Positions 2,361 to 44,527 of a stretch of 64,000 nt of DNA are shown one piece after another. Both the position numbers and the translations under genes were made by a program. The DNA comes from Arthrobacter sp. zg-Y919. Its GTDB lineage: Bacteria; Actinomycetota; Actinomycetes; Actinomycetales; Micrococcaceae. Below the pieces are notes generated by a model that was given only the letters and a program-made list of their open reading frames with translations, was not told where the DNA came from and searched no databases. The stretch's first letter is position 1, and each line of letters starts with the position of its first letter. Location: the NCBI RefSeq assembly GCF_030142045.1, contig NZ_CP126242.1, positions 2,790,001 to 2,854,000 of the forward strand, written 5' to 3'.

Positions 2361-3242
2361 CTATTCCTTGTTCAGCTTGTCCTGCACTTTGCCCGCGGCC
2401 TTCTCCACGGGGTTGGGCACATCAGTGGTGCCGTAGAACCGTGCGTCCGGCCGGGTGGGCGGAGGCATCGGAGCTCGCGTGGTGGGCCCGTCGTGGTAGC
2501 TGAACTCGCCCTTGCCGTCCGGCGTCGGACCCTTGGCCCAGGAACCTTCCTTCGCATGCTCCCCGTCGGAGAAGTTCAGGTACTGGTAGGACACCTCGCG
2601 GTGTTCCTTGTTGAGCGGGAAGTTGCTGGGTACCGGGAGCTGTTCCATGTTCTCCGCCTGAAGTTCCAGGGCCGCGGTGGTCCACTGGTTCTGGTGCATG
2701 GTGTCCCGGGCCAGCAGGAACGCCAGCAGGTCCCGCACCCCGTGGTCATCGGTCATGTGGTAAAGCCGGGCGACGGCGAGGCGGCCCTGCATTTCAATGT
2801 TGGCGTTGGACGTAAAGTCCGCCAGCATGTTGCCGCTAGCCGTGATGTAGCCGCCGGTCCAGGGATTGCCGTTGCTGTCCACCGGGCGTGCACCGGCACC
2901 GGCCGCAATCGCGTGCTGCACGTCCATGCCGCCCACCACTGCTGCAACCGTGGGATCGTCCTGGACGGCGTCGCTGGTAATCCCCAGCGGGGCCTTTTCC
3001 AGCAGCTGCGCAATCATGACGGCCAGCATTTCCACGTGGCCCATCTCCTCCGCAGCAATGCCGTACAGGAGGTCCCGGTATTTGCCGGGGATGTGCGCAT
3101 TCCAGGATTGGAATCCGTACTGCATGGCTACCGTGATTTCGCCGTACTGCCCGCCCAGGGCCTCCTGCAGCTTCCGGGCGAATACGGCATCCGGCTTATC
3201 CGGGGTCGCTTTGAACTGGAGTTCCTGTTTGTGGAAAAACAT
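2361..3242 (-). CDS. Manganese (non-haem) catalase
   Basis: The 293-residue protein is a dimanganese catalase that disproportionates hydrogen peroxide in the cytoplasm. The metal ligands of the Lactobacillus plantarum enzyme (E35, E66, H69, E148, H181) have counterparts here at E35, E66, H69, E150 and H183, within EITVAMQYGFQSW, AAEEMGHVEM, NIEMQGR and TMHQNQW. The C-terminal tail is rich in proline and charged residues, as is usual. It stands alone on the minus strand behind a shared terminator. Many actinobacteria and bacilli express such catalases under general stress or sporulation control, but no operator was recognised upstream here. Confidence 0.95.
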   Translation of the reverse strand: MFFHKQELQFKATPDKPDAVFARKLQEALGGQYGEITVAMQYGFQSWNAHIPGKYRDLLYGIAAEEMGHVEMLAVMIAQLLEKAPLGITSDAVQDDPTVAAVVGGMDVQHAIAAGAGARPVDSNGNPWTGGYITASGNMLADFTSNANIEMQGRLAVARLYHMTDDHGVRDLLAFLLARDTMHQNQWTTAALELQAENMEQLPVPSNFPLNKEHREVSYQYLNFSDGEHAKEGSWAKGPTPDGKGEFSYHDGPTTRAPMPPPTRPDARFYGTTDVPNPVEKAAGKVQDKLNKE

Positions 3243-3440
3243 GCATTCCTCCGCACCTTATGGACCGGCATCGAAGTCGGCTTTCTCCGCTGTCGGGGCG
3301 CCGTGGCCGGTCACGGTGGTTCCAACGTAGACCCGTGCCGGTACCCACGGAAGAGTAGGCAGACCACTTGGCCGACACAGGCAGCAACCGCAGCGTTTTC
3401 CTCCCTCTTTTTCTCCAGCCGCACCGGTAGTGTCCTTGCC

Positions 3441-4913
3441 ATGGTCTCCTCGGAACACACTGAAACTCCCGCACCCGGCCCGGAAACGGCTCCTGCCACG
3501 GACGTCACTGACGACTTCGCCGTCCGCCGGCACACGCTGCCGTCCGGCCTCGGTTACACCACCACCACCGGGCGGATGGTGTTCCGTAAGGAAGAGGTGA
3601 AGGACGGGAAGTCGGACGGCTTCCTGCCCAAGGCCGAGATTTTCCTGGTCGCCTACACCGCGGATGCTCCCGAGACCGGACCCAACCGCCGTCCCGTGGT
3701 CTTTGCCTTCAACGGCGGCCCGGGTTCCTCCTCGGTCTGGCTGCACATGGGTCTGCTGGGACCGCGGATGGTGGATTCCGGCGACGCCGGCGCGCTGACC
3801 CCTCCCCCGTTTGATCTGGTGGACAATCCGCAGACCCTGCTGCAGCACGCGGACCTGGTTCTGATCGATCCCGTGAACACCGGTTTCTCCCGCGTGGTGG
3901 ACGGCAACGACGCCGCCGAGTTCCACGGGTTCGAGGAGGACCGGGACCTGGTGGCGGAGGTGATCCGGCTCTGGACCACGCGCAACAACCGCTGGCTGAG
4001 CCCGAAGTACCTGGTGGGCGAGTCCTACGGCACCCTGCGCGCCGTGGCCGTGGCCGGGAAACTTTTCGATGCCTACGGACTGGCGGTCAACGGCCTGGGG
4101 CTGATTTCCACGGTGCTGAACCTGGCCACCCTGGATTTCGCGCCCGGCCGGGACGCCCCCTACGCCCTGCACCTGCCGACCTATGCCGCCATCGCGCACT
4201 TCCACGGCCGCCTTCCGGGCCGGGAGCTGGCCGACGTCGTGCGCGGGGCCGAAGAGTTCGCAGCGCGGGAGTACGGGTACGCCCTGACCCAGGGTGCGCG
4301 GTTGAGCGCCCAGGAATTTGACGACGTCGTCGCCCGCCTGGCGGAGATCACCTCCCTGAGTGAGGGGTTCATCCGCCGCACCAACCTGCGCTGGGACTAC
4401 TCGCAGTTCTCCGCGGAGCTGCTGCGCGGGGAGAACCTGGCGGTGGGGCGCATTGACGGGCGCTTTACCGCCCCCGCGGAGGACCCACAGGCTTCCATTA
4501 ACTGGGATGATCCCAGCCTGGCGGCCATCAACGGGCCCTACTCCGCGGCCATCAACCACTATCTCCGTGCGGAACTGGGGTACGAGAACGACCTCCCGTA
4601 CGAAATCCTCAGCGCCCGGGTCCAGCCGTGGAGCTACAAGTCCTTCGAGGGTGTGCCCGTGGATGTCACCGGAACACTGGAACGGCTGCTGGCGCACAAC
4701 CCGGCGATGCGCGTGCATGTGGACTACGGCTACTACGACGGCGCCACGCCGCATTTCGCGGCGGAGTACGTCTGGGCGCACCTGCGGCTGACCGAGGAAG
4801 CACGGGCGCGGTTCACCCACCACTACTACGAGGCCGGACACATGATGTACGTGAACCCCGGCTGCCGCGCGGACCAGCTGCGGAACCTGGCGGGGTTTGT
4901 GACCGCGGGCTAG
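3441..4913 (+). CDS. Serine carboxypeptidase (peptidase family S10)
   Basis: The 490-residue protein starts at ATG 3441; the open frame runs much further upstream but overlaps the catalase gene antisense. S10 hallmarks are the oxyanion motif FNGGPGSSSVW (about 90-100), the nucleophile motif GESYG with Ser195, and the C-terminal EAGHMMYV histidine region. The family removes C-terminal amino acids and works best at acidic pH. No signal peptide or lipobox is visible, so a cytoplasmic location is likely, unlike the vacuolar or lysosomal eukaryotic members. Its neighbours give no pathway. Family assignment is secure; the physiological substrate is unknown. Confidence 0.9.
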   Translation: MVSSEHTETPAPGPETAPATDVTDDFAVRRHTLPSGLGYTTTTGRMVFRKEEVKDGKSDGFLPKAEIFLVAYTADAPETGPNRRPVVFAFNGGPGSSSVWLHMGLLGPRMVDSGDAGALTPPPFDLVDNPQTLLQHADLVLIDPVNTGFSRVVDGNDAAEFHGFEEDRDLVAEVIRLWTTRNNRWLSPKYLVGESYGTLRAVAVAGKLFDAYGLAVNGLGLISTVLNLATLDFAPGRDAPYALHLPTYAAIAHFHGRLPGRELADVVRGAEEFAAREYGYALTQGARLSAQEFDDVVARLAEITSLSEGFIRRTNLRWDYSQFSAELLRGENLAVGRIDGRFTAPAEDPQASINWDDPSLAAINGPYSAAINHYLRAELGYENDLPYEILSARVQPWSYKSFEGVPVDVTGTLERLLAHNPAMRVHVDYGYYDGATPHFAAEYVWAHLRLTEEARARFTHHYYEAGHMMYVNPGCRADQLRNLAGFVTAG

Positions 4914-9121: not shown

Positions 9122-9249
9122 TCACCCTATGCCCGATGAGCGGTTCCGCTCAAGTCCGGGGTTCCACCACACAAATCGCCGCTGCTCTGGCCCTGCCTAC
9201 TGCCGGGGGCGCAGACTGCTGCATATCCAACTGCTTGGAAGGGAACATC

Positions 9250-9690
9250 ATGGCTGAGGGAACCCGGAAGCGGATTGTCGTTGGCGTGGACGGCTCGGAG
9301 GAGTCGCTGGAAGCGCTTCGTCTGGCCCGGCGGCTGGCGGACCTGCTGGACTGCCGCATTGACGCCATCACGGTGTGGGAGTTTCCGGCAATGCTGGCCA
9401 CACCGTTTCCCACCACCGATTGGTCGCCCCGGGTGGAAGCCGAGCGGGGCCTGGCCGAGGCCGTGGAAGCGGCCTTCGAAGGTAAAGGCACTCCGGAGGG
9501 TCTCACCCAGTCAGCGGTGGCCGGCCAGGCCGCCGGGGTGCTGATGGAAGCCAGCCGCGGGGCGGAGATGCTGGTGGTGGGCAACCGTGGGCGCGGTGGG
9601 TTTGCCGGCCTGCTGCTTGGTTCTGTCAGCACCACTGTGGCGGCGCACGCCTACTGTCCGGTGCTCATTGCCCGTCCCCACCGGGACTAG
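9250..9690 (+). CDS. Universal stress protein, UspA family
   Basis: The start ATG 9250 follows GGAAGGGA; the frame upstream of it is not family-like. The 146-residue protein is a single Usp domain: IVVGVDGSEESLEAL at the N-terminus and the ATP-binding VVGNRGRGGFAGLLLGSVS (G-2x-G-9x-G-S/T type) near the C-terminus. Such proteins bind ATP in the cytoplasm and support survival in stasis or hypoxia. Its stop codon falls inside a 33-bp tandem duplication shared with the end of the convergent MFS gene. Confidence 0.93.
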   Translation: MAEGTRKRIVVGVDGSEESLEALRLARRLADLLDCRIDAITVWEFPAMLATPFPTTDWSPRVEAERGLAEAVEAAFEGKGTPEGLTQSAVAGQAAGVLMEASRGAEMLVVGNRGRGGFAGLLLGSVSTTVAAHAYCPVLIARPHRD

Positions 9691-9740
9691 GACCACCGGT
9701 GGACCGGGCCCCACCGGGACTAGGACTACCGGTGGGCCGG
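9676..9740. repeat. 33-bp tandem duplication spanning two convergent gene ends
   Basis: The unit starting CCCCACCGGGACTAGGAC occurs at 9676-9708 and again, with a few changes, at 9709-9740. The first copy holds the usp stop codon and the second holds the MFS stop codon on the other strand. Each has a CCACCGGTGG or ACCGGTGG palindrome that may help termination. Confidence 0.75.
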
Positions 9741-11249
9741 AACGCGGCGCAGCAGCACGGCTGCACCGGCGGCGGCCAGCACCATGGTGAGCATGCCGAT
9801 CAGCGACGTGATGTTGACGCCGGAATCGAAGGCGGCCTGCGCGGAATGCAGCAGCGCCGATCCTGCCTCACCCGGCAGGCCGCGGGCCGCTTCCACCGCT
9901 CCGCCGAGGGTTTCCCCGGCCGCGGCGGTCTGTTCGGAACTCAGGCCGGCCGGAACCTCGACGCCGTTGCGGTAGGAAGCGGTCAGGATGCTGCCCAGCA
10001 CGGCCGTCCCCAGCACGGAGCCGATCTCGTACGCGGTCTCGGAAATGGCCGAAGCGGATCCGGCGCGGGACGGCGGAACGCTGGCCAGGATCAGGTCGTT
10101 GGAAATGGTTTCCGCGGCACCCACGCCCACTCCCAGGAACAGGAACGCGATCACCAGTTCCAGCAGGGTCACTGATTCACCGGCAACAAAGACCAGGCCG
10201 TAGCCGGCGGCGTTGAACAGCAGGCCGGCCGCAACCACGATCGCCGGGCGGACACGCTTCACCAGGGGCACCACGGCCAGGCCGGCGATGACGGTCAGCA
10301 CCAGGCCGGGCAGCATGGTCAGGCCGGCTTCGATCGGCGTCTGCCCCACCACCAGCTGCAGGTGCTGGGAGAGGAAGAAGATGAAGCCCACCATGGCGAA
10401 CAGGCTCAGCAGGTTCGAGGCGATGGAGCCGCTGAAGACCGGGTTCTGGAACAGCCGGACATCGAGCATGGGCTTTTCGCGGGACAGCTGGCGGCGGACA
10501 AACAGGAAGCCGAGCACCAGGCCGACGGCGATGAACGGCAGGCCGGCCGCGGCGCCGTCGTGCGCAAATTCCTTGATGCCGTAGGTCACGGAGAGCATGG
10601 CACCCATGACTAGCACGACGCCGAGCCGGTCAACGGCGCCGGGGCTGGGGTCCTTGGACTCGGGCAGCAGGATGGGGGCGAAGATCAGCAGCGGCAGCAG
10701 CACCGGGATGGACAGCAGGAACACCGAGCCCCACCAGAAGTGCTCGAGCAGCACGCCGCCCACAATCGGGCCGAGGGCCGCGCCGCCGGAGAAACCGGCC
10801 GCCCAGATGGCAACGGCAAACCGGCGCTGGGACGGGTCGGTGAAGATATTGCGGATCAGGGACAGTGTGGCCGGCATCAGCATGGCACCGAATACAGCCA
10901 TCAGGGCGCGGGCAACGATCAGCAGCGCCGCCGAGGGCGCGAACGCAGCCACCAGGGAGAAGACCCCGAAGCCCACACTGCCGATCATCAGCAGGCGCAG
11001 CCGGCCGATCCGGTCACCGAGGCTGCCCATCGGCACCAGCAGGCCGGCCAGGACCAGGGCATAGACATCCACAATCCACAGCAGTTCGACGCCGGTGGGC
11101 GCCAGAGCCTGCGACAGCGACGGGATGGCGAAGCTGAGGACGTTGTTATCGATGGAGACGAGCAGCACGGGCAGCATCAGGATGACGAGTCCCCACCATT
11201 CGCGCGTGCCTGCACGCGTAACTGCGGGATTTTCCTGGACCGCCAGCAC
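9726..11249 (-). CDS. DHA2-type MFS multidrug exporter controlled by divergent TetR
   Basis: The GTG at 11247-11249 is preceded by a strong AAGGAGG site, giving 507 residues; the longer open frame runs through the operator and TetR start and is rejected. Motifs are SIDNNVLSFAIPSLSQAL in helix 1, GSLGDRIGRLR in the 2-3 loop and GPIVGGVLLEHFWWGSVF in helix 5, matching 14-helix quinone/quaternary-ammonium exporters of the LfrA/SmvA/QacA group. The divergent TetR gene and an 18-bp operator lie in the shared control region, so it is probably repressed until a cationic drug or dye binds TetR. Confidence 0.92.
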   Translation of the reverse strand: MLAVQENPAVTRAGTREWWGLVILMLPVLLVSIDNNVLSFAIPSLSQALAPTGVELLWIVDVYALVLAGLLVPMGSLGDRIGRLRLLMIGSVGFGVFSLVAAFAPSAALLIVARALMAVFGAMLMPATLSLIRNIFTDPSQRRFAVAIWAAGFSGGAALGPIVGGVLLEHFWWGSVFLLSIPVLLPLLIFAPILLPESKDPSPGAVDRLGVVLVMGAMLSVTYGIKEFAHDGAAAGLPFIAVGLVLGFLFVRRQLSREKPMLDVRLFQNPVFSGSIASNLLSLFAMVGFIFFLSQHLQLVVGQTPIEAGLTMLPGLVLTVIAGLAVVPLVKRVRPAIVVAAGLLFNAAGYGLVFVAGESVTLLELVIAFLFLGVGVGAAETISNDLILASVPPSRAGSASAISETAYEIGSVLGTAVLGSILTASYRNGVEVPAGLSSEQTAAAGETLGGAVEAARGLPGEAGSALLHSAQAAFDSGVNITSLIGMLTMVLAAAGAAVLLRRVPAHR

Positions 11250-11306
11250 AGCGACCTCCTTCTGGAACAACGTTAGGGATTCATCACGGGAAACATACGA
11301 ATATCT

Positions 11307-11330
11307 ACTGTACCGTCTAGACTGTACGGT
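11307..11330. promoter_or_regulatory. TetR operator in the exporter/tetR divergent promoter
   Basis: The core GTACCGTCTAGACTGTAC (11310-11327) is an 18-bp inverted repeat with one mismatched pair; two more outer pairs match. It lies 58 bp from the exporter start and 47 bp from tetR, so it can control both. Confidence 0.7.
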
Positions 11331-11376
11331 GGCGAATCTGCGGCAGTTTCGTCCGCCGATGGCGTAGCGTGAAACC

Positions 11377-11943
11377 ATGCCCAACTCTCGTCCCGCCCGG
11401 GACCGCATCCTCGACGCTTACGAGGACCTGCTTATTAACGAAGGCCCGCGAGGTGCCACCCTGGATGCCGTCGTCGCGCGCGCCGAGGTTTCCAAAGGCG
11501 GCCTGCTCTATCACTTCAAGAACAAGGAAGCGATGGCCAGCGCGCTGATCGAAAGGCTCCGGGAGCTGGCTGCCACCGATCTGCAGACCATGCGTGAGGA
11601 CCCTGAAGGCCCGGCACGCTACCTCGTCCGCAGTTCCGTGTATGTGGGCAGCGAGCTGGACCGGGCGTTGATTGCCGTGGTGCGCCTTGCCCAGGCCTCG
11701 GATACAGCGGCATCGGACCTGCTGCAGGAGATCCACCGCAGCTGGTTCGACCTGGTCCAGCAGGAGATCGGCGATCCGGCCATTTCCCGGGCGGTTATGC
11801 TGCTCGCGGACGGGCTCTACTACAACGAGGGACTGCCCGGCGGCTGGCCGCAGGACACCCGGGACACCCGCTCCCGCTCGGTTCCCGAACTGCTCAACGT
11901 GGTGGACCTGCTCAAGTCCCACGCGCAGCAGGCGCGGGCGTAA
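11377..11943 (+). CDS. TetR-family repressor of the divergent MFS exporter
   Basis: The 188-residue protein has the TetR helix-turn-helix at residues 9-55 (ILDAYEDLLINEG, then TLDAVVARAEVSKGGLLYHFKNKEAM) and a helical ligand domain with a TetR_C motif ending in PELLNVVDLLKS. Family members bind operators as dimers and release DNA on ligand binding. It is divergent from the MFS exporter, with the palindromic operator between them. A TAGCGT hexamer lies six bases before the ATG, so the mRNA may be leaderless. Confidence 0.92.
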   Translation: MPNSRPARDRILDAYEDLLINEGPRGATLDAVVARAEVSKGGLLYHFKNKEAMASALIERLRELAATDLQTMREDPEGPARYLVRSSVYVGSELDRALIAVVRLAQASDTAASDLLQEIHRSWFDLVQQEIGDPAISRAVMLLADGLYYNEGLPGGWPQDTRDTRSRSVPELLNVVDLLKSHAQQARA

Positions 11944-12013
11944 CCCGCCCCTTCCCGCGATTGCCCGGCGTGGCAGGGCGGACTCCGCATGTGGCATCTG
12001 GCACTCTAGGGGC

Positions 12014-12481
12014 ATGGAAACAAGCACAGCTGACCTGTACGACGAGCGCGGAGACGACCTGGTCTCGGTGTCCCTGCAGTTCCAGGACCTGGGCGGGCAC
12101 ATCGGTTTCACCGGACCGGTCCGCACCGTCCGCTGTCTGGAGGACAACGGGCTGGTCAAGTCCCTGCTGAACTCCCCCGGGGAGGGCGCGGTGCTGGTGA
12201 TCGACGGCGCCGGGTCGCTGAACACCGCATTGATGGGGGACATGATCGCGGCCGCCGCCGCGGAGAACGGCTGGGCCGGCGTCGTCATCAACGGCGCCAT
12301 CCGCGACCGCGCCGCCGTCGCGAAGCTGCCGCTGGGGGTGAAGGCGCTGGGATCCAACCCGCGCAAGAGCGCCAAGAACTCTGTCGGCGAGGTGGATGTG
12401 CCCGTAGAGTTCGGCGGCGTCACCTTCCGTCCCGGCGCAGTGCTCTACGCCGACGAGGACGGGATCCTCGTCGAACCCTAG
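12014..12481 (+). CDS. rraA: RraA-like protein
   Basis: The ATG at 12014 gives 155 residues, the usual length for RraA. It shows GPVRTVRCLEDNGLVKSLL, LVIDGAGSLNTALMGDMIA and GVVINGAIRDRAAVAKLPLGVKALGSNPRKS, the last being the conserved loop around the Arg-Asp pair. RraA of E. coli inhibits RNase E, but many members are divalent-metal aldolases or oxaloacetate decarboxylases, and the RD pair seen here belongs to that active site. It lies eight bases before a dienelactone hydrolase gene, so an enzymatic role in aromatic-acid breakdown is possible. Confidence in the symbol is lower than in the family. Confidence 0.88.
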   Translation: METSTADLYDERGDDLVSVSLQFQDLGGHIGFTGPVRTVRCLEDNGLVKSLLNSPGEGAVLVIDGAGSLNTALMGDMIAAAAAENGWAGVVINGAIRDRAAVAKLPLGVKALGSNPRKSAKNSVGEVDVPVEFGGVTFRPGAVLYADEDGILVEP

Positions 12482-31370: not shown

Positions 31371-32081
31371 CTAGATCGGCGAGGGCGGCTGGTGGCTCTG
31401 GGCCAGGAAGGCGTTCAGGGTGTTGGTGCGGTGCGCGCGGGCGGCGTGCTCGACGTCGGCCGCTACGGCGTGTGTCTCGATCAGGTCCAGCAGGTGGTCG
31501 TGTTCCGCGACCGAGGCGTGCGCCCGGTCCGGGACGTAGCGGAAGACGGAGGAGCGCATGCGGCCCAGCCGGTTCCAGCCGCGGTGGACCAGGTCCAGGA
31601 TGTGCGGATTGGGGCAGCGGGCGTAGAGCAGGGCATGTAACTCGGTGTTGAGGGCGGTGAAGCGGACCGGGTCGAAGTTGCCCAGGACCTCGCGCATCTG
31701 GTTGTTCAGTTCCCGGGCCTTAGCCAGTTCCTCGGCGCTGATGTCCGGGGCGGCCAGGGCGGTGGCGGCACCTTCGATGATGCTGAGGGTCTGCATGGTG
31801 TGCAGGTACAGGTCCGGGTCGATGCCGGCCACCGTGGCGCCGACGTTGCGGACGAAGTGCACCAGTCCTTCTGCTTCGAGCCGGCGGATAGCTTCGCGGA
31901 CGGGGACCACGCTGAAGCCCATCTCGGTGGCGATGCCGCTGAGTACCAGGCGGTAGCCGGGGACGAGTTCGCCGCCGAGGATGCGGTCCTTGATTTGCTG
32001 GTAGGCCTGCTCGGACTTGGACCCGGTGCCCGTGGCGGTGCTGGCGGCGGTGCTGCTGGCGGGGCCGGTCACGCTGCTCAT
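31371..32081 (-). CDS. GntR/FCD-family regulator of the homoprotocatechuate operon
   Basis: The ATG at 32081 overlaps the stop of the hpaG fusion (ATGA). The 236-residue protein has a Ser/Thr/Ala-rich start, a GntR winged helix (SEQAYQQIKDRILGGELVPG, then GFSVVPVREAIRRLEAEGLV) and a C-terminal FCD helical domain with D/H metal-site residues (ALNTELHALLYA, VAEHDHLLDLI). FCD regulators bind organic acids. Its place inside the operon and the ATCGTATATGAT site before hpaG support local control. Confidence 0.92.
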   Translation of the reverse strand: MSSVTGPASSTAASTATGTGSKSEQAYQQIKDRILGGELVPGYRLVLSGIATEMGFSVVPVREAIRRLEAEGLVHFVRNVGATVAGIDPDLYLHTMQTLSIIEGAATALAAPDISAEELAKARELNNQMREVLGNFDPVRFTALNTELHALLYARCPNPHILDLVHRGWNRLGRMRSSVFRYVPDRAHASVAEHDHLLDLIETHAVAADVEHAARAHRTNTLNAFLAQSHQPPSPI

Positions 32082-33556
32082 GCCTGTTCCGCTGCCCAGG
32101 CCTCGTACTTTTCCTTCCAGGCGGCGTTCATCGGGTAGAGCCCGTCCACGCCGTGGCCGGCCCGAACCATTTCTGCGATGAACTCTTCCTGGTGTTCCTG
32201 CTTCAGACACGCCTCCACCAACTCCTCGGCCATGGCCGGCGGGATGACGAGGATACCGTCGTCGTCGGCCACGATGATGTCGCCGGGCTGCACGGTGGCG
32301 CCGCCGCAGGCGATGGTGAGGTCGGTGTCCCAAGGGACGTGCTTGCGGCCGAGGACGGCGGGGTGCGGGTTGGCGCAGTAGACGGGCAGGTCGATGCCGG
32401 CCACGGTGGAGTAGTCGCGGACGCCGCCGTCGGTGATGATGGCTGCGGCGCCGTTGTGCTTGGCGCGCAGGGCGAGGATGTCGCCCAGGGTGCCGGTGCC
32501 CTTTTCGCCGCGGGCTTCCATGACCAGGATTTCGCCCTCGCCCACGGAGTCGATAGCGCGTTTCTGCGCGTTGTAGCCGCCGCCGTGGGACTTGAAGAGG
32601 TCCTCGCGATCGGGGACGAAGCGCAGGGTGCGGGCGGTGCCGACCACCTTGCGGCCGGGGCGGGTGCCGGTGAGGCCGTCGATGGAGACGTTGTTCAGGC
32701 CGCGGGCGCGCATCTGCGAGGACAGGGTGGCGGTGGCGACGGATTCCAGCCGAGCCTTGAGCTCCGGGGTCAGGGTTTTCTGCTGGTCCTCGGTGGCGTG
32801 CGGGGCGAGGCCGGCCTTTTCCGCGGACCCCCAGGCTTCCTCGCGCTGCTTGTCGTCAATCCGAGGCTGCGCGCCGAAGGAGGCCAGCGGCGTGATGCCG
32901 TCGGTGACGGTAGTGGCAAGGCGGCCGGTGGTCTTATCGGTGCCGGGCACGTCGACTTCGACTTCGAGGCGGTCGCCGGGGACGGCCACGGAGGCGCCGG
33001 CGGGAGTGCCGGTGAGGATCAGGTCGCCCGGTTCCAGGGTGAGCAGCTGGGAGAGGTCGGCCACCAGCTGGGCGAAGGGGAAGAGCAGGTCCGCGGTGGT
33101 GTCATCCTGCGCGAGTTCGCCGTTGACCCAGGTGCGGACGCGCAGGGCGGCGGGGTCGACGTCGGCCGCGTTGAGGATCGCGGGGCCCACGGGGGTGAAG
33201 CCGTCGCCACCCTTGGAGCGGAGGTTGGAGCCCTTGTCTGCCCAGCGCAGGTCGTACACGCCCAGGTCGTTGCTGGCGGTCACTCCCCCGACGTAGCTCC
33301 ACGCGTCTTCGACGGTGACGCGGCGGGCGGTCTTGCCGATGACCAGGGCGATTTCACCTTCGAAGCCGAGCAGTTCGCAGCCGGCCGGGCGCTCGACGGC
33401 GCCGCCGGTTAGGGCCAGGGAGGAGCTGGGCTTGAGGAAGTAGGAGGGCTGTTCCGGGGTGCGTCCGCGTTCTGCCGCCCGCGAGGGGTAGTTGATGTGG
33501 ACGGCGATGACCTTGCCGGCCTGCTTCAGCGTGTCCGTGGTGGCGTCGTTGCCCAT
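32078..33556 (-). CDS. hpaG: Fusion of HpaG-type FAH hydrolase/isomerase and RraA-like domain
   Basis: The 492-residue protein joins two enzymes. Residues about 15-235 are a fumarylacetoacetate hydrolase domain (KPSSSLALTGGAVERP, EGEIALVIGKTARRV with metal Glu-x-Glu, GDLILTGTPAG), as in HpaG, the OPET decarboxylase/HHDD isomerase. Residues about 270-490 are RraA-like (TATLSSQMRARG, GEGEILVMEARG, GDILALRAKHNGAAAIITDGGVRD with the R-D pair). E. coli HpaG has two FAH halves; here the second is replaced by an RraA-type unit, which in other bacteria can decarboxylate oxaloacetate-like keto acids. It is the first gene of the operon, with AGGAGAG before the ATG. Confidence 0.9.
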   Translation of the reverse strand: MGNDATTDTLKQAGKVIAVHINYPSRAAERGRTPEQPSYFLKPSSSLALTGGAVERPAGCELLGFEGEIALVIGKTARRVTVEDAWSYVGGVTASNDLGVYDLRWADKGSNLRSKGGDGFTPVGPAILNAADVDPAALRVRTWVNGELAQDDTTADLLFPFAQLVADLSQLLTLEPGDLILTGTPAGASVAVPGDRLEVEVDVPGTDKTTGRLATTVTDGITPLASFGAQPRIDDKQREEAWGSAEKAGLAPHATEDQQKTLTPELKARLESVATATLSSQMRARGLNNVSIDGLTGTRPGRKVVGTARTLRFVPDREDLFKSHGGGYNAQKRAIDSVGEGEILVMEARGEKGTGTLGDILALRAKHNGAAAIITDGGVRDYSTVAGIDLPVYCANPHPAVLGRKHVPWDTDLTIACGGATVQPGDIIVADDDGILVIPPAMAEELVEACLKQEHQEEFIAEMVRAGHGVDGLYPMNAAWKEKYEAWAAEQA

Positions 33557-33591: not shown

Positions 33592-33730
33592 GAGAGTGAC
33601 ATGTGGTGTAAGTCACGTCAAGGGGTCTTGAAAGACATATAAGGCTGACGCAGAACCCCGGGGAAGCCCGGGGCACTCCCTCGTAGAAAGCCGTAAGACC
33701 GACCCAGATGGTTTCTCCCGCATCACATCC

Positions 33731-35956
33731 CTACCGCTTGAAAGATACGTTGTGCACATTCACTGAATGAAGTCCCGAACCGACGAATTTAATGGGTCGG
33801 GCTTCGCCAGGGACATCCCACTGCTCAACTCCGGGTCCGTTACGGTCCCACTTTGTGAAGGATACGTATGTTGTCCTGGCCCCGGGAGCTATAGGCCGAA
33901 GCTTTCGGGCGAGTAGTGAAGCGAAAGCATGATCATGTGTCGTTACAACCAACTGGCGGAAAGGAAGAATTTTACGAAGCAAATCAACCAATCCGAGCAG
34001 GTGGACGTCGTCGAGGTTCTGTAAGGGGTCATCCAAGACCAAGGCTTTCATATGTGCCGGCGAGAACCCCAAGTTGAAAGCCAGAAATATCGAAACTGCA
34101 AGAGCATTAGCTTGGGACGTGGACAGCGTTTCCCCAGGAGCCCCAACATCGATCTTCGATTCCTCGTCGCGAAGCACCGGCGTTAGACGGTGCTTCCCCC
34201 TAAAACTGCGGGTCGTTATTCCTACTGATCGGAACGTCGGATGTGGATCGATGGCTGAATAGAACTGACCAAGGAGCGGCTGGAGCTGGGACAACCTCTC
34301 AGAGACGAACTTGTCAGCATCAGCTTTAACCAGTTCAAGCAAAGAGGCCGCAACATCGTTGGTATGCCGTCGAGCGGCGATGTCGCTTTCCTTAGCATCC
34401 AAGGTGTGGCGGATTTCGGATGCTTCAGCCATAATCCGATCTCGACGCGACTTAGTCGTTCGAAGCGCAGCAACAGCCTCGAATTGTCCACCAGCTTCAG
34501 ACGCGCGCCTGATCTGATCCCTACGAAGGGTTAGATACTCCAGTTCCATTCGAATTCGGTCTAGCCCGCTGGTGACATCCAAGGCCTGCACAGTATCAAC
34601 TCCGGCAGTCCTCAAGACCTCACGAAGGCGCTCCTCACGATGCTGCCGGGCAGCGAGTGCGGCGGCCCTACGTTCCCGAATCCCCCGTTGATCGTCTGTA
34701 AGCTGACGGAGCAAGAGGTCGGCTTCGCGCACTCGCTGCTTCGCTGAGTCCAACTGCACTCGTTCGCGGTTTACGCTCGTCCTGAGTCTCACGTCTTCCG
34801 AGTCAGCAGCCATTAGCTCGAGGCGGGCGCGATACCGCTCTGCTGCTACGGATTGCCCACACGCCGCACAGTGGTCGGAGACATGCCGCAACAGAATGTT
34901 GGCCATGTTTGCCATGTCTTCCCGCAGCGACTCCGCTCGCCTCAAAACGTCTTCTGCCTCTATTACCGCCTCCTGGAGGGCAGCTGCCTGAGTCTCAGCC
35001 TCGTCTTTTTGCATGGAAATCGCTATTATCTCAGCGGCGATATTCTCCATCGTTGAGTCATCAGGATAATCCGGAAGTGGAACACTGAGCTCGCCCTGGA
35101 TGGCGGTGAGGGCGGACACCTTCTGTTCGACCTCGCTACGATCACGGGAAAGACTGGTTCGCAGTCTGCTTAACGATTCCTCGGTGAGCTCCGCGTCACC
35201 GAGATCAGATAACCCTCTTAGGTCCAGAGCTCGAACCTCCTTGAGCCAATCTCGCCAATGCGCTTGCACCTCAGGTCTGTCTGCGCTTGCAATTTCGGAT
35301 TCAAGTATCTCAAGGCTCGCTTTCAAGTCCTCGAGTTTTCCCCGCTCATCAGCCAATGCGGTGTCTGCTTGGTTGCTAGCCTTTACCCAAGCAACTTTTT
35401 GAGACTGCAATCCGTCCGCGAATTCACGTAGCCGCCCGGCTCCAACCATTCTTGCGACGGCATCAAAGCGCTCCGTGTCTTCCCGTACCGTCAAGAACTC
35501 CCTCAAAGATTCTTGGCGGAGGTAAATAGAATCTATAAATGAATTAACGACCGTTTCAAAATCTTCGTCCGATTCGCTTCCAGCGAGTTGTCGACGCAAC
35601 CAGCCTTCCGCCTCTTGACCGCGCCAAACCCTATTGTCGAGACGTACGCGAAGGGGACATTTCTGCTTGCGCGGATCCGATTCATCGGGGTTGTCGACAG
35701 ATCTAACCACACTCGCAGATTCTCCATCAAAATCTACTTTTAGTTCTACGGACGTCGTGCCCGACTTTGTGTACAGGTTTTGGGGTCCTTGGCTCCCCGG
35801 ACTCTTTCCAGAAAGAACCCACGCTATCGCGTTGCAAATCGTTGTCTTCCCGTATCCATTTGCGCCGACAACTATTACGACGTCGGCATCAAGGTCAACG
35901 CGAATCTCACTCGCGACTCCACCAAATCCGACGATTACGATTTCTTTCAGCCTCAT
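33731..35956 (-). CDS. Rad50/SMC-like ATPase of a three-gene defence operon
   Basis: The 741-residue protein has a split ABC ATPase: Walker A GANGYGKTT (about 32-40) and, after a long heptad-rich coiled-coil region, signature-like LSTSQANALAVS, Walker B ALVLDDPLQNLDD and an H-loop TTHDH. Midway in the coil lies HCAACG, a CxxC zinc-hook motif as in Rad50/SbcC. No SbcD nuclease is adjacent. It overlaps the 212-residue gene upstream by 4 bp and is the last gene of the SIR2 operon. In ABC-three-component systems such an ATPase is thought to sense invading nucleic acid and control an effector; that role is inferred here. Its DNA is AT-richer than the flanks. Confidence 0.88.
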   Translation of the reverse strand: MRLKEIVIVGFGGVASEIRVDLDADVVIVVGANGYGKTTICNAIAWVLSGKSPGSQGPQNLYTKSGTTSVELKVDFDGESASVVRSVDNPDESDPRKQKCPLRVRLDNRVWRGQEAEGWLRRQLAGSESDEDFETVVNSFIDSIYLRQESLREFLTVREDTERFDAVARMVGAGRLREFADGLQSQKVAWVKASNQADTALADERGKLEDLKASLEILESEIASADRPEVQAHWRDWLKEVRALDLRGLSDLGDAELTEESLSRLRTSLSRDRSEVEQKVSALTAIQGELSVPLPDYPDDSTMENIAAEIIAISMQKDEAETQAAALQEAVIEAEDVLRRAESLREDMANMANILLRHVSDHCAACGQSVAAERYRARLELMAADSEDVRLRTSVNRERVQLDSAKQRVREADLLLRQLTDDQRGIRERRAAALAARQHREERLREVLRTAGVDTVQALDVTSGLDRIRMELEYLTLRRDQIRRASEAGGQFEAVAALRTTKSRRDRIMAEASEIRHTLDAKESDIAARRHTNDVAASLLELVKADADKFVSERLSQLQPLLGQFYSAIDPHPTFRSVGITTRSFRGKHRLTPVLRDEESKIDVGAPGETLSTSQANALAVSIFLAFNLGFSPAHMKALVLDDPLQNLDDVHLLGLVDLLRKILPFRQLVVTTHDHAFASLLARKLRPIAPGARTTYVSFTKWDRNGPGVEQWDVPGEARPIKFVGSGLHSVNVHNVSFKR

Positions 35957-36591
35957 GCTCTGAACTCCGTTTCGTGTGAAGCACCGAGGAGTCTGTGGAG
36001 AACCTCAAGTGTTGACATTCCTGATTCGAAGGCGTCAACCATTGCAGGAATATATGCAACTGCATTGGGGTACGACGATAAACGACTGGAGAGTAAGTCA
36101 AGCGGGTCTAACCGACCGTTACCTGGATCAACATTTAGGTCAAGGACAGGTGCTAGGGCTCGGCGAATATGAGGTGTTACTTCCAAGGCATCGGAGACAC
36201 TTCGGGGAAGATCGTCGCCCGTAATAATTAGCTTACGAACCCGTCTCGTATCCGACCGAATGCGCGCGACATCAGCTACGAGGTCATCCGGAATACCATC
36301 CAGTGCGACCAACACCAAGTAGCCATCCCACGACTTGGGATCAGTGTTTACTATGGTCGCCCCAAGGAATTCGATGACCGCATCCTGGGCACGTCCCCAG
36401 TTGCTGACGAGGCTTGGGACTGAGTCGAAGGCCCAAATGGCTATTATTGAATACTCATCTTCAAAGGCTGCGGACCCCTTTGGCCATGTCTCTAGGTATC
36501 GCATTGGGTCTACACGAACCATATTTGATTCGGTAAACAATCGCGTAATCTCAGCAAGTAGAGACTCGTTAGTAACGACCTTGTTAGTCAT
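35953..36591 (-). CDS. Middle protein of the SIR2/ATPase operon (ABC-3C middle component-like)
   Basis: The 212-residue protein has no recognised enzyme motif. It has an N-terminal helical part (NESLLAEITRLFTESN), an alpha/beta core (SIIAIWAFDSVPSLV, DGYLVLVALDGIPDD, RKLIITGDDL) and a helical C-terminus (LDPLDLLSSRL, MVDAFESGMSTLEVLHRLLG). Size and the position between an effector-type gene and a Rad50-like ATPase match the 'middle component' of ABC-three-component systems. It overlaps both neighbours by 4 bp, so all three are translated in coupled fashion and probably form one complex. Confidence 0.7.
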   Translation of the reverse strand: MTNKVVTNESLLAEITRLFTESNMVRVDPMRYLETWPKGSAAFEDEYSIIAIWAFDSVPSLVSNWGRAQDAVIEFLGATIVNTDPKSWDGYLVLVALDGIPDDLVADVARIRSDTRRVRKLIITGDDLPRSVSDALEVTPHIRRALAPVLDLNVDPGNGRLDPLDLLSSRLSSYPNAVAYIPAMVDAFESGMSTLEVLHRLLGASHETEFRA

Positions 36592-38021
36592 CGCATGATC
36601 CCGTCAATAGTAGCCGCGACTTCGCTGAGTGGGGCGTGAAGGAATTCATCAACGAACAAGGGAAAGAGTGTATCCGCTCCTCTAATAAGGTCACCGGAAT
36701 TGCTCGCTCTTATCAAGTCATCCACCCCAGACAAATCCACGTTTGAATTAGTTGCCCCCGCAACCATGACTATGCCGGTACGATTCTGGGGGGCCAGACC
36801 CTCGTTACGGTTGCGGACCTTGGTGCTGATCCCCGCCCAGGAGTTCAGACCCTTGCCATGTGCCATACCGACGACCATGGGAGCGCCGTGGGCGGGGTTC
36901 ACTTTAAACCTGCCATGGTCATCAAGCTCGACTGACGTTGCACTTAAGGCTGTCTTCAACCTGTCCAGGCCCAATAGAAGATGCGCGATGTGTTGGCGCC
37001 GCGCAGAATCGCCTTCCGCTGTGTACTTGCTGGTCTCCAGCAGCCACGTGGAGCGCGCGCTGCCAAGTTTCAACAAGTCAATATTTTCGAGGGGAGCAGT
37101 GACACTCCGCGTCTGCAAAGAGGCCATGCTGGGTTCATCTTTTGCGAGTTGCTCGTGCGCCTCGGTTAGATGATGCAGATGTTCCGTGGTTACTCGCTCG
37201 GCGAGCTTCTGCATGAATTCACCCCAGTAGAGCCCAACAGAGCCAGTGAGGTTCACACCCAGCGCCTCAGAGAATTTTGACTCCTGATTTCGATCCACCA
37301 AGAAGTATGAAGAGTTAGCTTTCGTCGTGAGGCGTGCAACGCTCTCCGTTAGGACATTGGCGGGACTGCCTAGACCAACGAAAATAACAATAGGAGCGGA
37401 GAGATTTGCAGCCGCGATAACGCTCTCCCATTTATCTCGCCACTCAGTGTCTAAGTCGTTCTTCCGCAGCACCCAGTCTTCTTCATTTTGATTGACGCTG
37501 CGGTGGAGGTAGATAATAGAATGAGCACTCAACTTCGCATGCTCGTCGGGCCCCTCGACAAAGGTGACTTCGGACCTATTTCCTAGTTCGGTAAGTGCAT
37601 TCTGAAAGGCAAGGTCATAGTTTAGGGAAATTACATGACGGAGAGCCCCCTCAATAAGCAGAGCGGCCGCGATTAGATGACCCACATTGGGTCTTGCGGT
37701 CCTCCACGAATCCTTGGGCAACCGACTGGTCAGTGGAACCTGGGACCCGTGCTTTGCGTACACTACATCGGCGAGGACAGAGAGGTCGTCCGGGTCATTA
37801 CAGTCTCCTCGCTTCAGCAGACCGTCAGCAACGAGCCGCCGATGAGCCTCCCTCGAGTAGTGCGAACCACTCTCAAATCCTGTCGGTTGCTCCATCGAAA
37901 CGCCTGCACCGACGACTAAGACCACTCGGCTTCCGGCTGCGTCAGTGATTTGTCCGAGAATTTCCGGCGGAATAGCAACCGTGGTTCCGTCCACAGCAAC
38001 TACCTGAGATGTTTCGGTCAC
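36588..38021 (-). CDS. SIR2-family protein, putative NADase effector
   Basis: The 477-residue protein starts at GTG 38021 after GGGGGAAG. The N-terminal half is a SIR2-fold domain: VVGAGVSM (NAD-binding GAGxS), SLNYDLAF (Asn/Asp of the NAD pocket), YLHRSV with the expected catalytic His, and IFVGLGSPAN. The zinc-ribbon cysteines of deacetylase sirtuins are absent, as in bacterial defence SIR2 proteins that deplete NAD+. Residues 300-477 are a separate domain without a known motif, perhaps a partner-binding or sensing part. Sample composition is near 53% G+C (32 of 60 at 36601-36660), much lower than the flanks, suggesting transfer. Confidence 0.85.
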   Translation of the reverse strand: MTETSQVVAVDGTTVAIPPEILGQITDAAGSRVVLVVGAGVSMEQPTGFESGSHYSREAHRRLVADGLLKRGDCNDPDDLSVLADVVYAKHGSQVPLTSRLPKDSWRTARPNVGHLIAAALLIEGALRHVISLNYDLAFQNALTELGNRSEVTFVEGPDEHAKLSAHSIIYLHRSVNQNEEDWVLRKNDLDTEWRDKWESVIAAANLSAPIVIFVGLGSPANVLTESVARLTTKANSSYFLVDRNQESKFSEALGVNLTGSVGLYWGEFMQKLAERVTTEHLHHLTEAHEQLAKDEPSMASLQTRSVTAPLENIDLLKLGSARSTWLLETSKYTAEGDSARRQHIAHLLLGLDRLKTALSATSVELDDHGRFKVNPAHGAPMVVGMAHGKGLNSWAGISTKVRNRNEGLAPQNRTGIVMVAGATNSNVDLSGVDDLIRASNSGDLIRGADTLFPLFVDEFLHAPLSEVAATIDGIMR

Positions 38022-38463
38022 TCTTCCCCCATGACTCTGATGCAGGTGAACACGACGAATACGCGATTAAGTGTAATAAGTCAGACAGTCTAACCGGTTG
38101 AACCACATTTTGAACCTGCACACTGCGTTAGGTCGATAAAGGCCAGTCACCCAGCTAATAACAAGGTGTGAGATCTAGTCGCAAAGTCATGGGTGGCTTC
38201 ATCGCACCGATATCGCCGCCGGACCCGATAGTCTCCGTGTGCGGTCTTTGTTGCAAAATCTCCAATTGCTGCGCTGCGGTCAAGACAACGGCTCGGCCCT
38301 CGCGAGTCCTCACCTAGGGACTTCGGTTCCCGGTCGCCAGTCAACGCGGTGTGTGACATTGACCTTGCCTCGGAATAGGCAAGGCCTTTCACGTGGTTGT
38401 CGCTGGATAGACAAACTTCAGCTCAATGGAACCTTCCTGCGGGCGCGCAACAGAAAGAACCAC
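38022..38463. other. Gene-free stretch upstream of the SIR2 operon
   Basis: This 442-bp stretch is AT-rich on its left side, where the SIR2 promoter must lie (TTATTACACTTAAT on the minus strand near 38068-38081). A CCTTGCC/GGCAAGG hairpin at 38363-38384, with a short T tract on the plus strand, may be the terminator of a lost gene. No coding segment was recognised. Confidence 0.4.
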
Positions 38464-39543
38464 TTGAAACTCTTTACCCCCCTCACCGTCGGCGCCATGG
38501 AACTGCCCAACCGCCTCGTCATGGCACCGATGTCCCGCGTACGCGCCGACCGCAACGGCGTGCCCACCGACATCATGGTCGAGCACTACCGCCAGCGCGC
38601 ATCCATGGGCCTGATCATCACTGACGGCATCTACCCCTCCTTCACCGGCCAGGGCAACGCCCTGATGCCCGGCCTGGTCACCGAGGAACACGTCGCCGGC
38701 TGGAAGCGCGTCACCGACGCCGTGCACGCCGCCGGCGGCCGGATCGTCGCCCAGCTGATGCACTCCGGACGCGTCGCGCACGAGAACATCAACGGCGGCC
38801 GCCCCGTCGTCGCCCCCAGCGCCATCGCGGTTGAAGGCATGGCACACACCTACGACGGCAAACAGCCCTTCCCCGTGCCGCACGCCCTCACCGAAGCCGA
38901 ACTCCCCGGCGTCGTGCAGGACTTCGTCTCCGCCGCGCGGAATGCCATGAAGGCAGGGTTCGACGGCGTGGAGCTGCACGGTGCCAACGGGTACCTGCTG
39001 CAGGAATTCCTCTCCCCCGTCTCCAACACGCGCACCGACAACTACGGCGGATCGCCGGAGAATCGTGCCCGCCTGGTCATCGAGGCGTTCCGTGCCGTGG
39101 CCGAGGCCATCGGCGCCGAGCACACCGGCATCCGCATCTCCCCGGAGCACAACATCCAGGGCGTGCTGGAAACCGACCGCGCCGACGTGACCGCCACCTA
39201 CACCGCCCTGGTGGACGGCATCGCCGATCTGAAGCCGGCGTACCTGAGCATCCTGCACGCCGATCCGGCCGACGAGATGGTCCAGGGCCTGCGCCACCGG
39301 TTCGGCGGACCGGTGCTGATGAACACCGGCTTCGGCTCGGTCACCACCCGCGACGACGCCGTCATGCTGCTCGAAGAGAACCTGGCCGACGCCGCCGTCG
39401 TCGGCCGTCCCGTGATCGCCAACCCGGACCTGGCCCGCCGCTGGCAGGAGGACCACCCGCTGAACGAGATCGACCAGGCCACCGTCTACACCGACGGTGC
39501 CGCCGGCTACACGGACTACCCGGAGCTGGCTCCAGTTTCCTAG
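38464..39543 (+). CDS. Old yellow enzyme / alkene reductase (complete copy)
   Basis: A TTG at 38464 starts the expected N-terminus KLFTPLTVGAMELPNRLVMAPMS, giving 359 residues; the 75 codons upstream in frame lack similarity. It is an FMN-dependent TIM-barrel ene-reductase: GLIITDGIYP, IVAQLMHSGR, ELHGANGYLLQEFLSP (His/Asn-type substrate pair HxxN), TDNYGGSPENRARL and VVGRPVIANPDL. It reduces activated C=C bonds with NAD(P)H. Broken copies of its 3' half lie at 43952-44527 and 55255-55339. A strong terminator follows. Confidence 0.9.
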   Translation: MKLFTPLTVGAMELPNRLVMAPMSRVRADRNGVPTDIMVEHYRQRASMGLIITDGIYPSFTGQGNALMPGLVTEEHVAGWKRVTDAVHAAGGRIVAQLMHSGRVAHENINGGRPVVAPSAIAVEGMAHTYDGKQPFPVPHALTEAELPGVVQDFVSAARNAMKAGFDGVELHGANGYLLQEFLSPVSNTRTDNYGGSPENRARLVIEAFRAVAEAIGAEHTGIRISPEHNIQGVLETDRADVTATYTALVDGIADLKPAYLSILHADPADEMVQGLRHRFGGPVLMNTGFGSVTTRDDAVMLLEENLADAAVVGRPVIANPDLARRWQEDHPLNEIDQATVYTDGAAGYTDYPELAPVS

Positions 39544-43851: not shown

Positions 43852-43951
43852 GGTGGTCGGACGCACGCCTGCGGTCACCCTGTTTGAACTGGCCGACGGC
43901 GCCATCCGCCCCTGACGATCGGGCCCTAGCAACAACCTATTCCGGCTGACC

Positions 43952-44527
43952 CGCACCGACAACTACGGCGGCTCCCCGGAGAACCGCGCCCGGATGGTCA
44001 TCGAGACCTTCCGCGCCGTGGCCGAGGCCGTCGGCGCCGAGCACACCGGCATCCGCATCTCCCCGGAACACAACATCCAGGGTGTGCTGGAAACCGACCG
44101 CGCCGACGTGACCGCCACCTACACCGCCCTGGTGGACGGCATCGCCGACCTGAAGCCCGCCTACCTGTCCATCCTGCACGCCGATCCGGCCGACGAGCTG
44201 ATCCAGGGCCTGCGCCACCGCTTCGGCGGCCCGGTGCTGCTGAACACCGGCTTCGGCTCGGTCACCACCCGCAGCGACGCCGTCATGCTGCTCGAGGAGG
44301 ACCTGGCCGACGCCGCCGTCGTCGGCCGCCCCGTGATCGCCAACCCGGACCTCGCCCGCCGCTGGCAGGAAGACCACCCGCTGAACGAGATCGACCAGGC
44401 TACCGTCTACACCGACGGTGCCGCCGGCTACACGGACTACCCGGAGCTGGCTCCCAACGAAGCACCCGACGCGCCCGCCTCGTCGAGTGAGGCCCACGCC
44501 ACTCCTACGAGGGAGCAACCGAACTGA
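43952..44527 (+). pseudogene. 3' fragment of an old-yellow-enzyme gene
   Basis: The reading frame matches the C-terminal 168 residues of the ene-reductase at 38464 from RTDNYGGSPENRAR to TDYPELAP, with scattered substitutions, but has no start and lacks the FMN-barrel N-terminal half. After ELAP it runs into a different tail (NEAPDAPASSSEAHATPTRE). The left edge is abrupt. Its end overlaps the 2-hydroxyacid dehydrogenase gene by 23 bp. It is a separate paralogue rather than a recent exact duplicate. Confidence 0.8.

What the first reader, a model, noticed from the sequence alone, without database searches (positions are those of the whole stretch)
33731..38021. Three-gene SIR2 - middle protein - Rad50-like ATPase island, likely anti-phage system
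Three genes with 4-bp overlaps encode a SIR2 (NADase-type) protein without zinc-ribbon cysteines, a 212-residue protein of no known family, and an SMC/Rad50-like ATPase with a CxxC hook but no partner nuclease. The block is AT-richer than its flanks and interrupts an aromatic-catabolism and reductase neighbourhood. The layout matches predicted ABC-three-component conflict systems, with SIR2 as effector. The pairing of this particular middle protein and the extra C-terminal SIR2 domain with a zinc-hook ATPase may be an uncharacterised subtype.
Basis: partly seen in the sequence, partly recalled or inferred. Interest (0 to 1): 0.82.

Follow-up and report, generated by a model that had tools for sequence, protein, structure and literature searches.

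The report
SIR2-armed Lamassu-type phage defence operon
A bacterial chromosome carries a three-gene set that very probably senses invading DNA and then destroys the cell's NAD+; it belongs to a known class of phage-defence systems and sits in a chromosomal slot where sister species keep other defence genes.

Summary
Three minus-strand genes overlapping by 4 bp (window 38021-33731) encode a SIR2 protein, a 212-aa middle protein and a Rad50-like ATPase with a CxxC hook. Best reading: a Lamassu/ABC-3C operon with a SIR2 NADase effector. The ATPase matches PADLOC LmuB (E 2.6e-43). The SIR2 model (pLDDT 91.7) resembles ThsA, DSR2 and KomC and keeps the catalytic Asn and His. The middle protein resembles Pfam MComp1, an ABC-3C middle component, only below its cut-off. 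All 7 loci examined (about 4 independent lineages) keep the order SIR2-middle-ATPase. New evidence: the operon fills a variable slot between an FAA-hydrolase/RraA gene and an FMN-oxidoreductase gene. In 9 of 14 sister-species slots examined, other genes match PADLOC defence models, one being a complete lmuC-lmuB-lmuA set; 0 of 10 hand-picked window genes outside the slot do. SIR2 effectors are already listed for Lamassu in a review, so this is a divergent member of a known kind; no PADLOC LmuA or LmuC model recognises its effector or middle protein. Defence activity, trigger and NAD+ loss are inferred. The middle protein's weak likeness to PD-(D/E)XK-type folds is the most novel open point.

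The parts
36588..38021 (-). LmuA-like effector: N-terminal SIR2 domain plus a separate C-terminal alpha/beta domain (477 aa, GTG start, start uncertain)
   Evidence: ORF; SIR2_2 E 2.6e-4 (below cut-off); model pLDDT 91.7, ThsA/DSR2/KomC matches
37164..37970 (-). SIR2 domain (about residues 18-286)
37896..37910 (-). GAGVS nucleotide-binding motif, residues 38-42
   Evidence: G38, A39, G40 and S42 each present in 105 of 112 rows, the other 7 gapped
37620..37622 (-). catalytic Asn134
   Evidence: 111 of 112 rows; equivalent to N133 of DSR2 / N113 of ThsA by motif
37503..37505 (-). catalytic His173
   Evidence: 112 of 112 rows; equivalent to H171 of DSR2 by motif
36591..37109 (-). C-terminal domain of the effector, residues 305-477, probable docking domain
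   Evidence: separate alpha/beta element order in the model, ten-residue pLDDT means mostly 83-98 but 57 and 68 for residues 431-450; no Pfam family in the window protein
35953..36591 (-). middle protein, MComp1-like / LmuC position (212 aa)
   Evidence: MComp1 E 0.011, below cut-off; 12 of 29 members of the family alignment match MComp1 at E up to 1, best 0.003
33731..35956 (-). LmuB-like Rad50/SMC-family ATPase (741 aa)
   Evidence: PADLOC LmuB E 2.6e-43; AAA_23 3e-13; Rad50 and SMC chains in PDB
35843..35866 (-). Walker A GANGYGKT, residues 31-38
   Evidence: N33, G34, G36, K37 in 60 of 60 rows
34859..34870 (-). CAAC zinc-hook motif, residues 363-366
   Evidence: both Cys in 60 of 60 rows
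34112..34126 (-). ABC signature LSTSQ, residues 611-615
   Evidence: L611, S612, S614 and Q615 in 60 of 60 rows; FSTSQ in the distant copy L072
34010..34042 (-). Walker B LVLDDPLQNLD, residues 639-649, with Asp in place of the usual catalytic Glu
   Evidence: D642, D643, P644 in 60 of 60 rows
33625..38350 (.). variable chromosomal slot holding the operon; the right edge lies between about 38351 and 38447 in 12 of 14 relatives
   Evidence: DNA similarity to sister species stops at window 33622-33634 in 14 of 14 and resumes at 38351-38447 in 12 of 14 (38591 and 38571 in L057 and L060, where the right-hand gene is incomplete)

Best explanation
This is a Lamassu/ABC-3C-type abortive-infection operon. 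The Rad50-like ATPase (LmuB) and the middle protein (LmuC/MComp1-like) form the sensor, which probably recognises DNA ends or unusual structures on phage or plasmid DNA. At rest they hold the SIR2 protein (LmuA) inactive through its C-terminal domain. On activation the effector is released or assembled, its SIR2 domains multimerise and hydrolyse NAD+, and the infected cell stops supporting the invader. Shown here: the three conserved genes and their order, intact catalytic and ATP-binding motifs, the SIR2 fold by model, and the location in a slot rich in defence-type genes. Inferred from other Lamassu and SIR2 systems: the trigger, docking, release and multimerisation, NAD+ loss, and defence itself.
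Against: The effector matches no PADLOC LmuA model (its only PADLOC hit is a SIR2 Argonaute-associated model, E 6e-4) and the middle protein no PADLOC model at E up to 1. The MComp1 match is below its curated cut-off (16 against 27.3 bits). hhalign to one MComp1 domain gave E 0.0017 but only 15% probability. Asp stands at the catalytic Glu position of the ATPase, where PMC10586767 reports Gln for LmuB. The Lamassu set found in the same slot of G416 is not matched by our three profiles, so kinship among these systems is distant. No activity data exist. The operon was not found in viral contigs, phages or plasmids and is rare.
Confidence: 0.85

Rival explanations
1. Primarily an anti-plasmid / anti-conjugation system: the same sensor and NADase, but the natural target is plasmid DNA rather than phage.
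For: The Lamassu member DdmABC acts on plasmids as well as phages (PMC12409362 passages). In Leucobacter, Microbacterium and Mycetocola the operon sits on a shared 10.6-kb DNA module with a TrwC relaxase gene, so it may serve competition between mobile elements there (Pfam scan of the Leucobacter copy only).
Against: No plasmid record in the collection gave a match to the middle protein; in the window the operon is chromosomal, in a slot shared with anti-phage gene types.
Confidence: 0.2
2. A DNA-repair or NAD-dependent signalling operon: a Rad50-like ATPase with a SIR2 protein that deacylates or modifies proteins rather than destroying NAD+.
Against: No Mre11/SbcD-like gene flanks it; other long ATPase frames, probably SbcC and SMC by length, are elsewhere in the genome (1040 and 1237 aa). 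No zinc-ribbon cysteines in SIR2. Most top structural rows are defence NADases. No full-length ATPase match in the 28 other genus genomes.
Confidence: 0.06
3. A toxin-antitoxin-like selfish stabilisation module: the SIR2 protein is a toxin kept in check by the other two, serving the element rather than the host.
For: Operon on mobile modules with recombinase and relaxase genes; one copy has its SIR2 gene interrupted by an IS3-type insertion while the other two genes stay open.
Against: A two-protein ATPase sensor is more elaborate than an antitoxin; LmuB homology points to DNA sensing; the slot's other contents are often defence genes.
Confidence: 0.08

Closest known systems
Lamassu superfamily (LmuA-LmuC-LmuB; ABC-3C; DdmABC)
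   Same: Three genes in effector-middle-ATPase order, LmuB-type Rad50-like ATPase with zinc hook, effector with N-terminal enzyme and C-terminal extra domain.
   Different: SIR2 effector instead of the Cap4 nuclease of DdmABC; effector and middle protein are not recognised by PADLOC LmuA/LmuC models; Asp rather than Gln at the Walker B Glu position (Gln from PMC10586767).
MComp1 (PF20289), ABC-3C middle component 1
   Same: Aligned stretch 58-128 with a W-x-x-YL motif followed by an I-x-x-D...RK stretch.
   Different: Below the curated cut-off in the window protein; with an extra C-terminal helical part beyond the matched stretch.
Defence SIR2 NADases (ThsA of Thoeris, DSR2, KomC, SPARSA SIR2-APAZ)
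   Same: SIR2 fold and Asn/His catalytic pair.
   Different: Sequence barely related (best PDB profile hit E 0.024); partner genes differ; the C-terminal domain was not matched.
Rad50/SbcC
   Same: ABC ATPase halves and CxxC hook.
   Different: 741 aa, shorter than Rad50 or SbcC, and no Mre11/SbcD gene beside it; LSTSQ signature.

Membership tests
Lamassu / ABC-3C system | SMC/Rad50-like ATPase of the LmuB family | tested here: met
   PADLOC LmuB PDLC03859 E 2.6e-43, residues 1-685
Lamassu / ABC-3C system | Effector LmuA with N-terminal enzyme domain and extra C-terminal domain, encoded in the operon | tested here: met
   SIR2 about 18-286 plus separate domain 305-477; but not matched by any PADLOC LmuA model
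Lamassu / ABC-3C system | Small middle component between effector and ATPase | tested here: met
   212-aa gene in position in the window; in 7 of 7 loci
Lamassu / ABC-3C system | Middle component belongs to a described MC/LmuC family | tested here: inconclusive
   MComp1 E 0.011, below cut-off; 12 of 29 members match at E up to 1, best 0.003; hhalign E 0.0017, probability 15%; no PADLOC match
Lamassu / ABC-3C system | Anti-phage or anti-plasmid activity requiring effector catalysis | not testable with these tools
   needs experiment
SIR2 NADase effector | SIR2 fold | tested here: met
SIR2 NADase effector | Catalytic Asn and His of defence SIR2s | tested here: met
   N134 in 111 of 112, H173 in 112 of 112 rows; DSR2 N133/H171; also TTNWD and KVHG in the distant copy L072
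SIR2 NADase effector | NAD+ hydrolysis | not testable with these tools
   needs assay
Rad50-Mre11 (SbcCD) repair complex | Adjacent Mre11/SbcD nuclease | tested here: not met
   FAA_hydrolase/RraA and OYE-type genes flank the operon
PD-(D/E)XK nuclease fold (middle protein) | Fold | tested here: inconclusive
PD-(D/E)XK nuclease fold (middle protein) | Catalytic D...(D/E)xK motif | tested here: inconclusive
   Conserved E44, K86, W88, D89, D114 (28 of 29), R116, R117, R119, K120, but no clear (D/E)xK triad seen by eye; distant copies vary at some of these

The most novel reading that the evidence does not exclude
The middle component has an inactivated restriction-endonuclease-like fold that acts as a DNA (end) reader, standing where Mre11 stands in Rad50 complexes, and passes the signal to a SIR2 NADase through the effector's C-terminal domain. 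Lamassu middle components of this family would then descend from a nuclease subunit that lost catalysis and became an adaptor.
Probability: 0.2. Interest if true: 0.55.

Novelty: new member of a known kind. Interest (0 to 1): 0.38.

Why it matters
If right, it gives a compact actinobacterial example of an SMC-type DNA sensor wired to an NAD+-depleting effector. That would show directly how one sensor chassis can drive nucleases, proteases or NADases. Current PADLOC models would probably miss the operon as a system, because only the ATPase matches a Lamassu model. The slot is useful in itself: the same place in sister species holds many different genes of known defence types, so unassigned genes there (for example a 959-aa AAA_16 protein, L049:267-3146) are good candidates for new systems.

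Tried and rejected
Mobile carriers: the middle-protein alignment found no relative in viral contigs, and tblastn of the middle protein found none in phages or plasmids at E 1e-5.

C-terminal domain of SIR2: no Pfam family in the window protein. Among 53 members scanned, the only hit there was a weak recurrent Peptidase_M17_N (6 of 53, best E 0.017; where in the proteins it lies was not shown). None of 10 members then scanned singly showed it, so I did not use it.

MComp1 as a family marker: PF20289 over cut-off was found in 1 of 296 phylum genomes and not in G000. That locus has no match to our SIR2 or middle-protein profiles; its MComp1 is fused to an LmuB-like ATPase.

PDB profile searches gave no useful match for the middle protein (best E 0.36) and only weak SIR2 hits (E 0.024).

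Empty site: no sister species with a truly empty slot was found among the 14; the smallest interval still has about 2.4 kb of other DNA. So target-site duplication could not be tested.

Selection in the slot test: 14 of the 28 other genus genomes were examined, those with the left gene and at least part of the right gene near each other on one contig. In L057 (G398) and L060 (G417) the right edge is an incomplete copy of the right-hand gene. G413, G403 and G402 stretches were fetched too but left out of the count, because their intervals are long or cut. Of 62 ORFs of 100 aa or more found in the 14 intervals, 26 were scanned with PADLOC: 12 matched at E up to 1e-3 (9 of 10, 1 of 6 slot proteins, 2 of 10). 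They were chosen mainly by size, so the share is not that of a random draw. No match among what was scanned: L049 (2 of 2 ORFs scanned), L050 (1 of 12; most of its ORFs look by eye like lactate-racemisation and other metabolic genes), L051 (4 of 5), L052 (2 of 3); L061 was not scanned (0 of 7). The control set of 10 window genes outside the slot was chosen by hand.

Motif patterns: my first patterns missed the catalytic Asn motif and the ABC signature in the most distant copy, L072; read directly they are TTNWD and FSTSQ, with KVHG for the His.

Literature: searches. 'Lamassu-Sir2' is in no held paper; it is a DefenseFinder subtype name that I recall. Krishnan et al. 2020 (ABC-3C, recalled) and Haudiquet et al. 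2025 (Lamassu structures) are not held, so their content was not checked.
Full report
WHAT IS THERE. The block has 54.0% GC against 65.2% for the rest of the window and lower GC3 than nearly every other chosen ORF. The window is part of a single-contig genome of 3.08 Mb.

THE ATPASE. It matches PADLOC LmuB (E 2.6e-43) and Rad50 and SMC heads. Key residues of Walker A, the CxxC hook, an LS[TS]SQ signature and a DDP Walker B are invariant in 60 of 60 aligned sequences; the more distant L072 has FSTSQ. Asp stands where ABC ATPases usually have the catalytic Glu; PMC10586767 reports Gln there for LmuB generally, so slow ATP turnover is plausible but untested.

CO-OCCURRENCE. L014-L017 are 89-92% identical in DNA over 10.6 kb (4.7 kb for the short contig L016) and count as one lineage, so about 4 lineages are independent. 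In L016 only the C-terminal part of the SIR2 gene is on the contig, behind an IS3-type transposase gene. As a cruder sign, 12 contig lengths (one being our own contig) are shared between the SIR2 and ATPase hit lists, and 8 of these also with the middle-protein list (counted by eye). The system is rare: the middle protein was found in 1 genome besides our own among 396 phylum genomes and in none besides our own among 396 order genomes; SIR2 in 1 besides our own of 396 phylum genomes and 1 besides our own of 394 class genomes. Among 29 genus genomes only ours has a full-length ATPase match.

THE SLOT. The gene to the left (window 32078-33556, FAA_hydrolase+RraA) has a close match (85-100%) in 29 of 29 genus genomes, one of them broken. 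The gene to the right (38449-39543, FMN oxidoreductase) has a close match (81-100%) in 28 of 29; in G396 the best is 60%. What lies between them differs. DNA similarity stops at window 33622-33634 in 14 of 14 sister species examined and resumes at 38351-38447 in 12 of 14. These 14, of 28, are the ones with the two flanks near each other. Their slots contain, by best PADLOC names: LmuC-LmuB-LmuA (L048), HEC-06 with GmrSD domains (L054), PDC-S06 (L055), Old/GajA-like (L058, L060), NsnB/HEC-03B (L059), PDC-M32A (L057) and PDC-S35 TIR proteins (L053, L056). That is 9 of 14 species, and 12 of 26 proteins scanned out of 62 ORFs; the other 5 species gave none among what was scanned. The 10 window genes outside the slot that I scanned gave 0 matches. 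Several PADLOC names are candidate systems rather than proven ones, and a single-gene match is not a complete system. With those limits, the slot is a defence hotspot, and the operon is most likely one of its interchangeable contents.

HOW IT LIKELY WORKS. By analogy with Lamassu: the ATPase plus middle protein detect DNA ends, hairpins or stalled replication (proposed for Lamassu in PMC10586767 and PMC12904381, passages read). Activated LmuA is released and forms a tetramer in studied cases (cited in PMC12409362, passages read). Here the released enzyme would be a SIR2 NADase, as in DSR2 or ThsA. All of these steps are inferred for this operon.

MOBILITY. In Leucobacter (L017) the operon lies directly behind a large serine recombinase gene, and in Microbacterium, Mycetocola and Leucobacter it shares a 10.6-kb DNA module that includes a TrwC relaxase gene (the Pfam scan was of the L017 copy). 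In G165 (L066) it lies beside a DUF499/HmaC gene.

VERDICT. Novelty is modest: a divergent SIR2-effector Lamassu/ABC-3C family, found in a defence hotspot.

Noticed in passing
window 33625-38447 and L048-L061: The slot between the FAA_hydrolase/RraA gene and the OYE-type gene looks like a defence hotspot in this genus: 9 of 14 sister slots examined carry proteins matching different PADLOC defence models.
   Followed up: yes
L048:377-5421: The same slot in G416 holds a complete Lamassu set (LmuC, LmuB, LmuA; E 1.6e-71, 3e-192, 1.1e-139) that our three profiles do not match.
   Followed up: partly
L049:267-3146 and 3177-3953: Slot in G423 holds a 959-aa protein with only a sub-threshold AAA_16 match and a 258-aa neighbour, neither matching PADLOC: candidate new defence genes.
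   Followed up: no
window 43949-44454: A partial copy (93.9% identical, bases 580-1085) of the OYE-type gene of 38449-39543 lies 4.4 kb downstream; fragments of this gene also occur near the slot in several sister species, suggesting recombination through it.
   Followed up: partly
L017:350-2377 and 9123-12425; L014-L015: In other actinobacteria the operon lies on a shared 10.6-kb module with a TrwC relaxase gene; in Leucobacter a large serine recombinase gene is directly upstream.
   Followed up: partly
L016:1-1304: An IS3-type transposase gene abuts and interrupts the SIR2 gene in Microbacterium lacus SDZm4 while the middle and ATPase genes stay open: effector loss by insertion.
   Followed up: partly
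L073:576-3674: A protein from G116 carries an MComp1 domain and an LmuB-like ATPase in one chain, so middle component and ATPase can be one polypeptide.
   Followed up: partly
L017:6775-8535 (and L015:10887-12647): A 586-aa gene, without Pfam match in the L017 copy, follows the ATPase in the mobile copies but not in the window.
   Followed up: no
L066:978-3812: A DUF499/HmaC ATPase gene sits directly upstream of the operon in G165, another defence-type neighbour.
   Followed up: no
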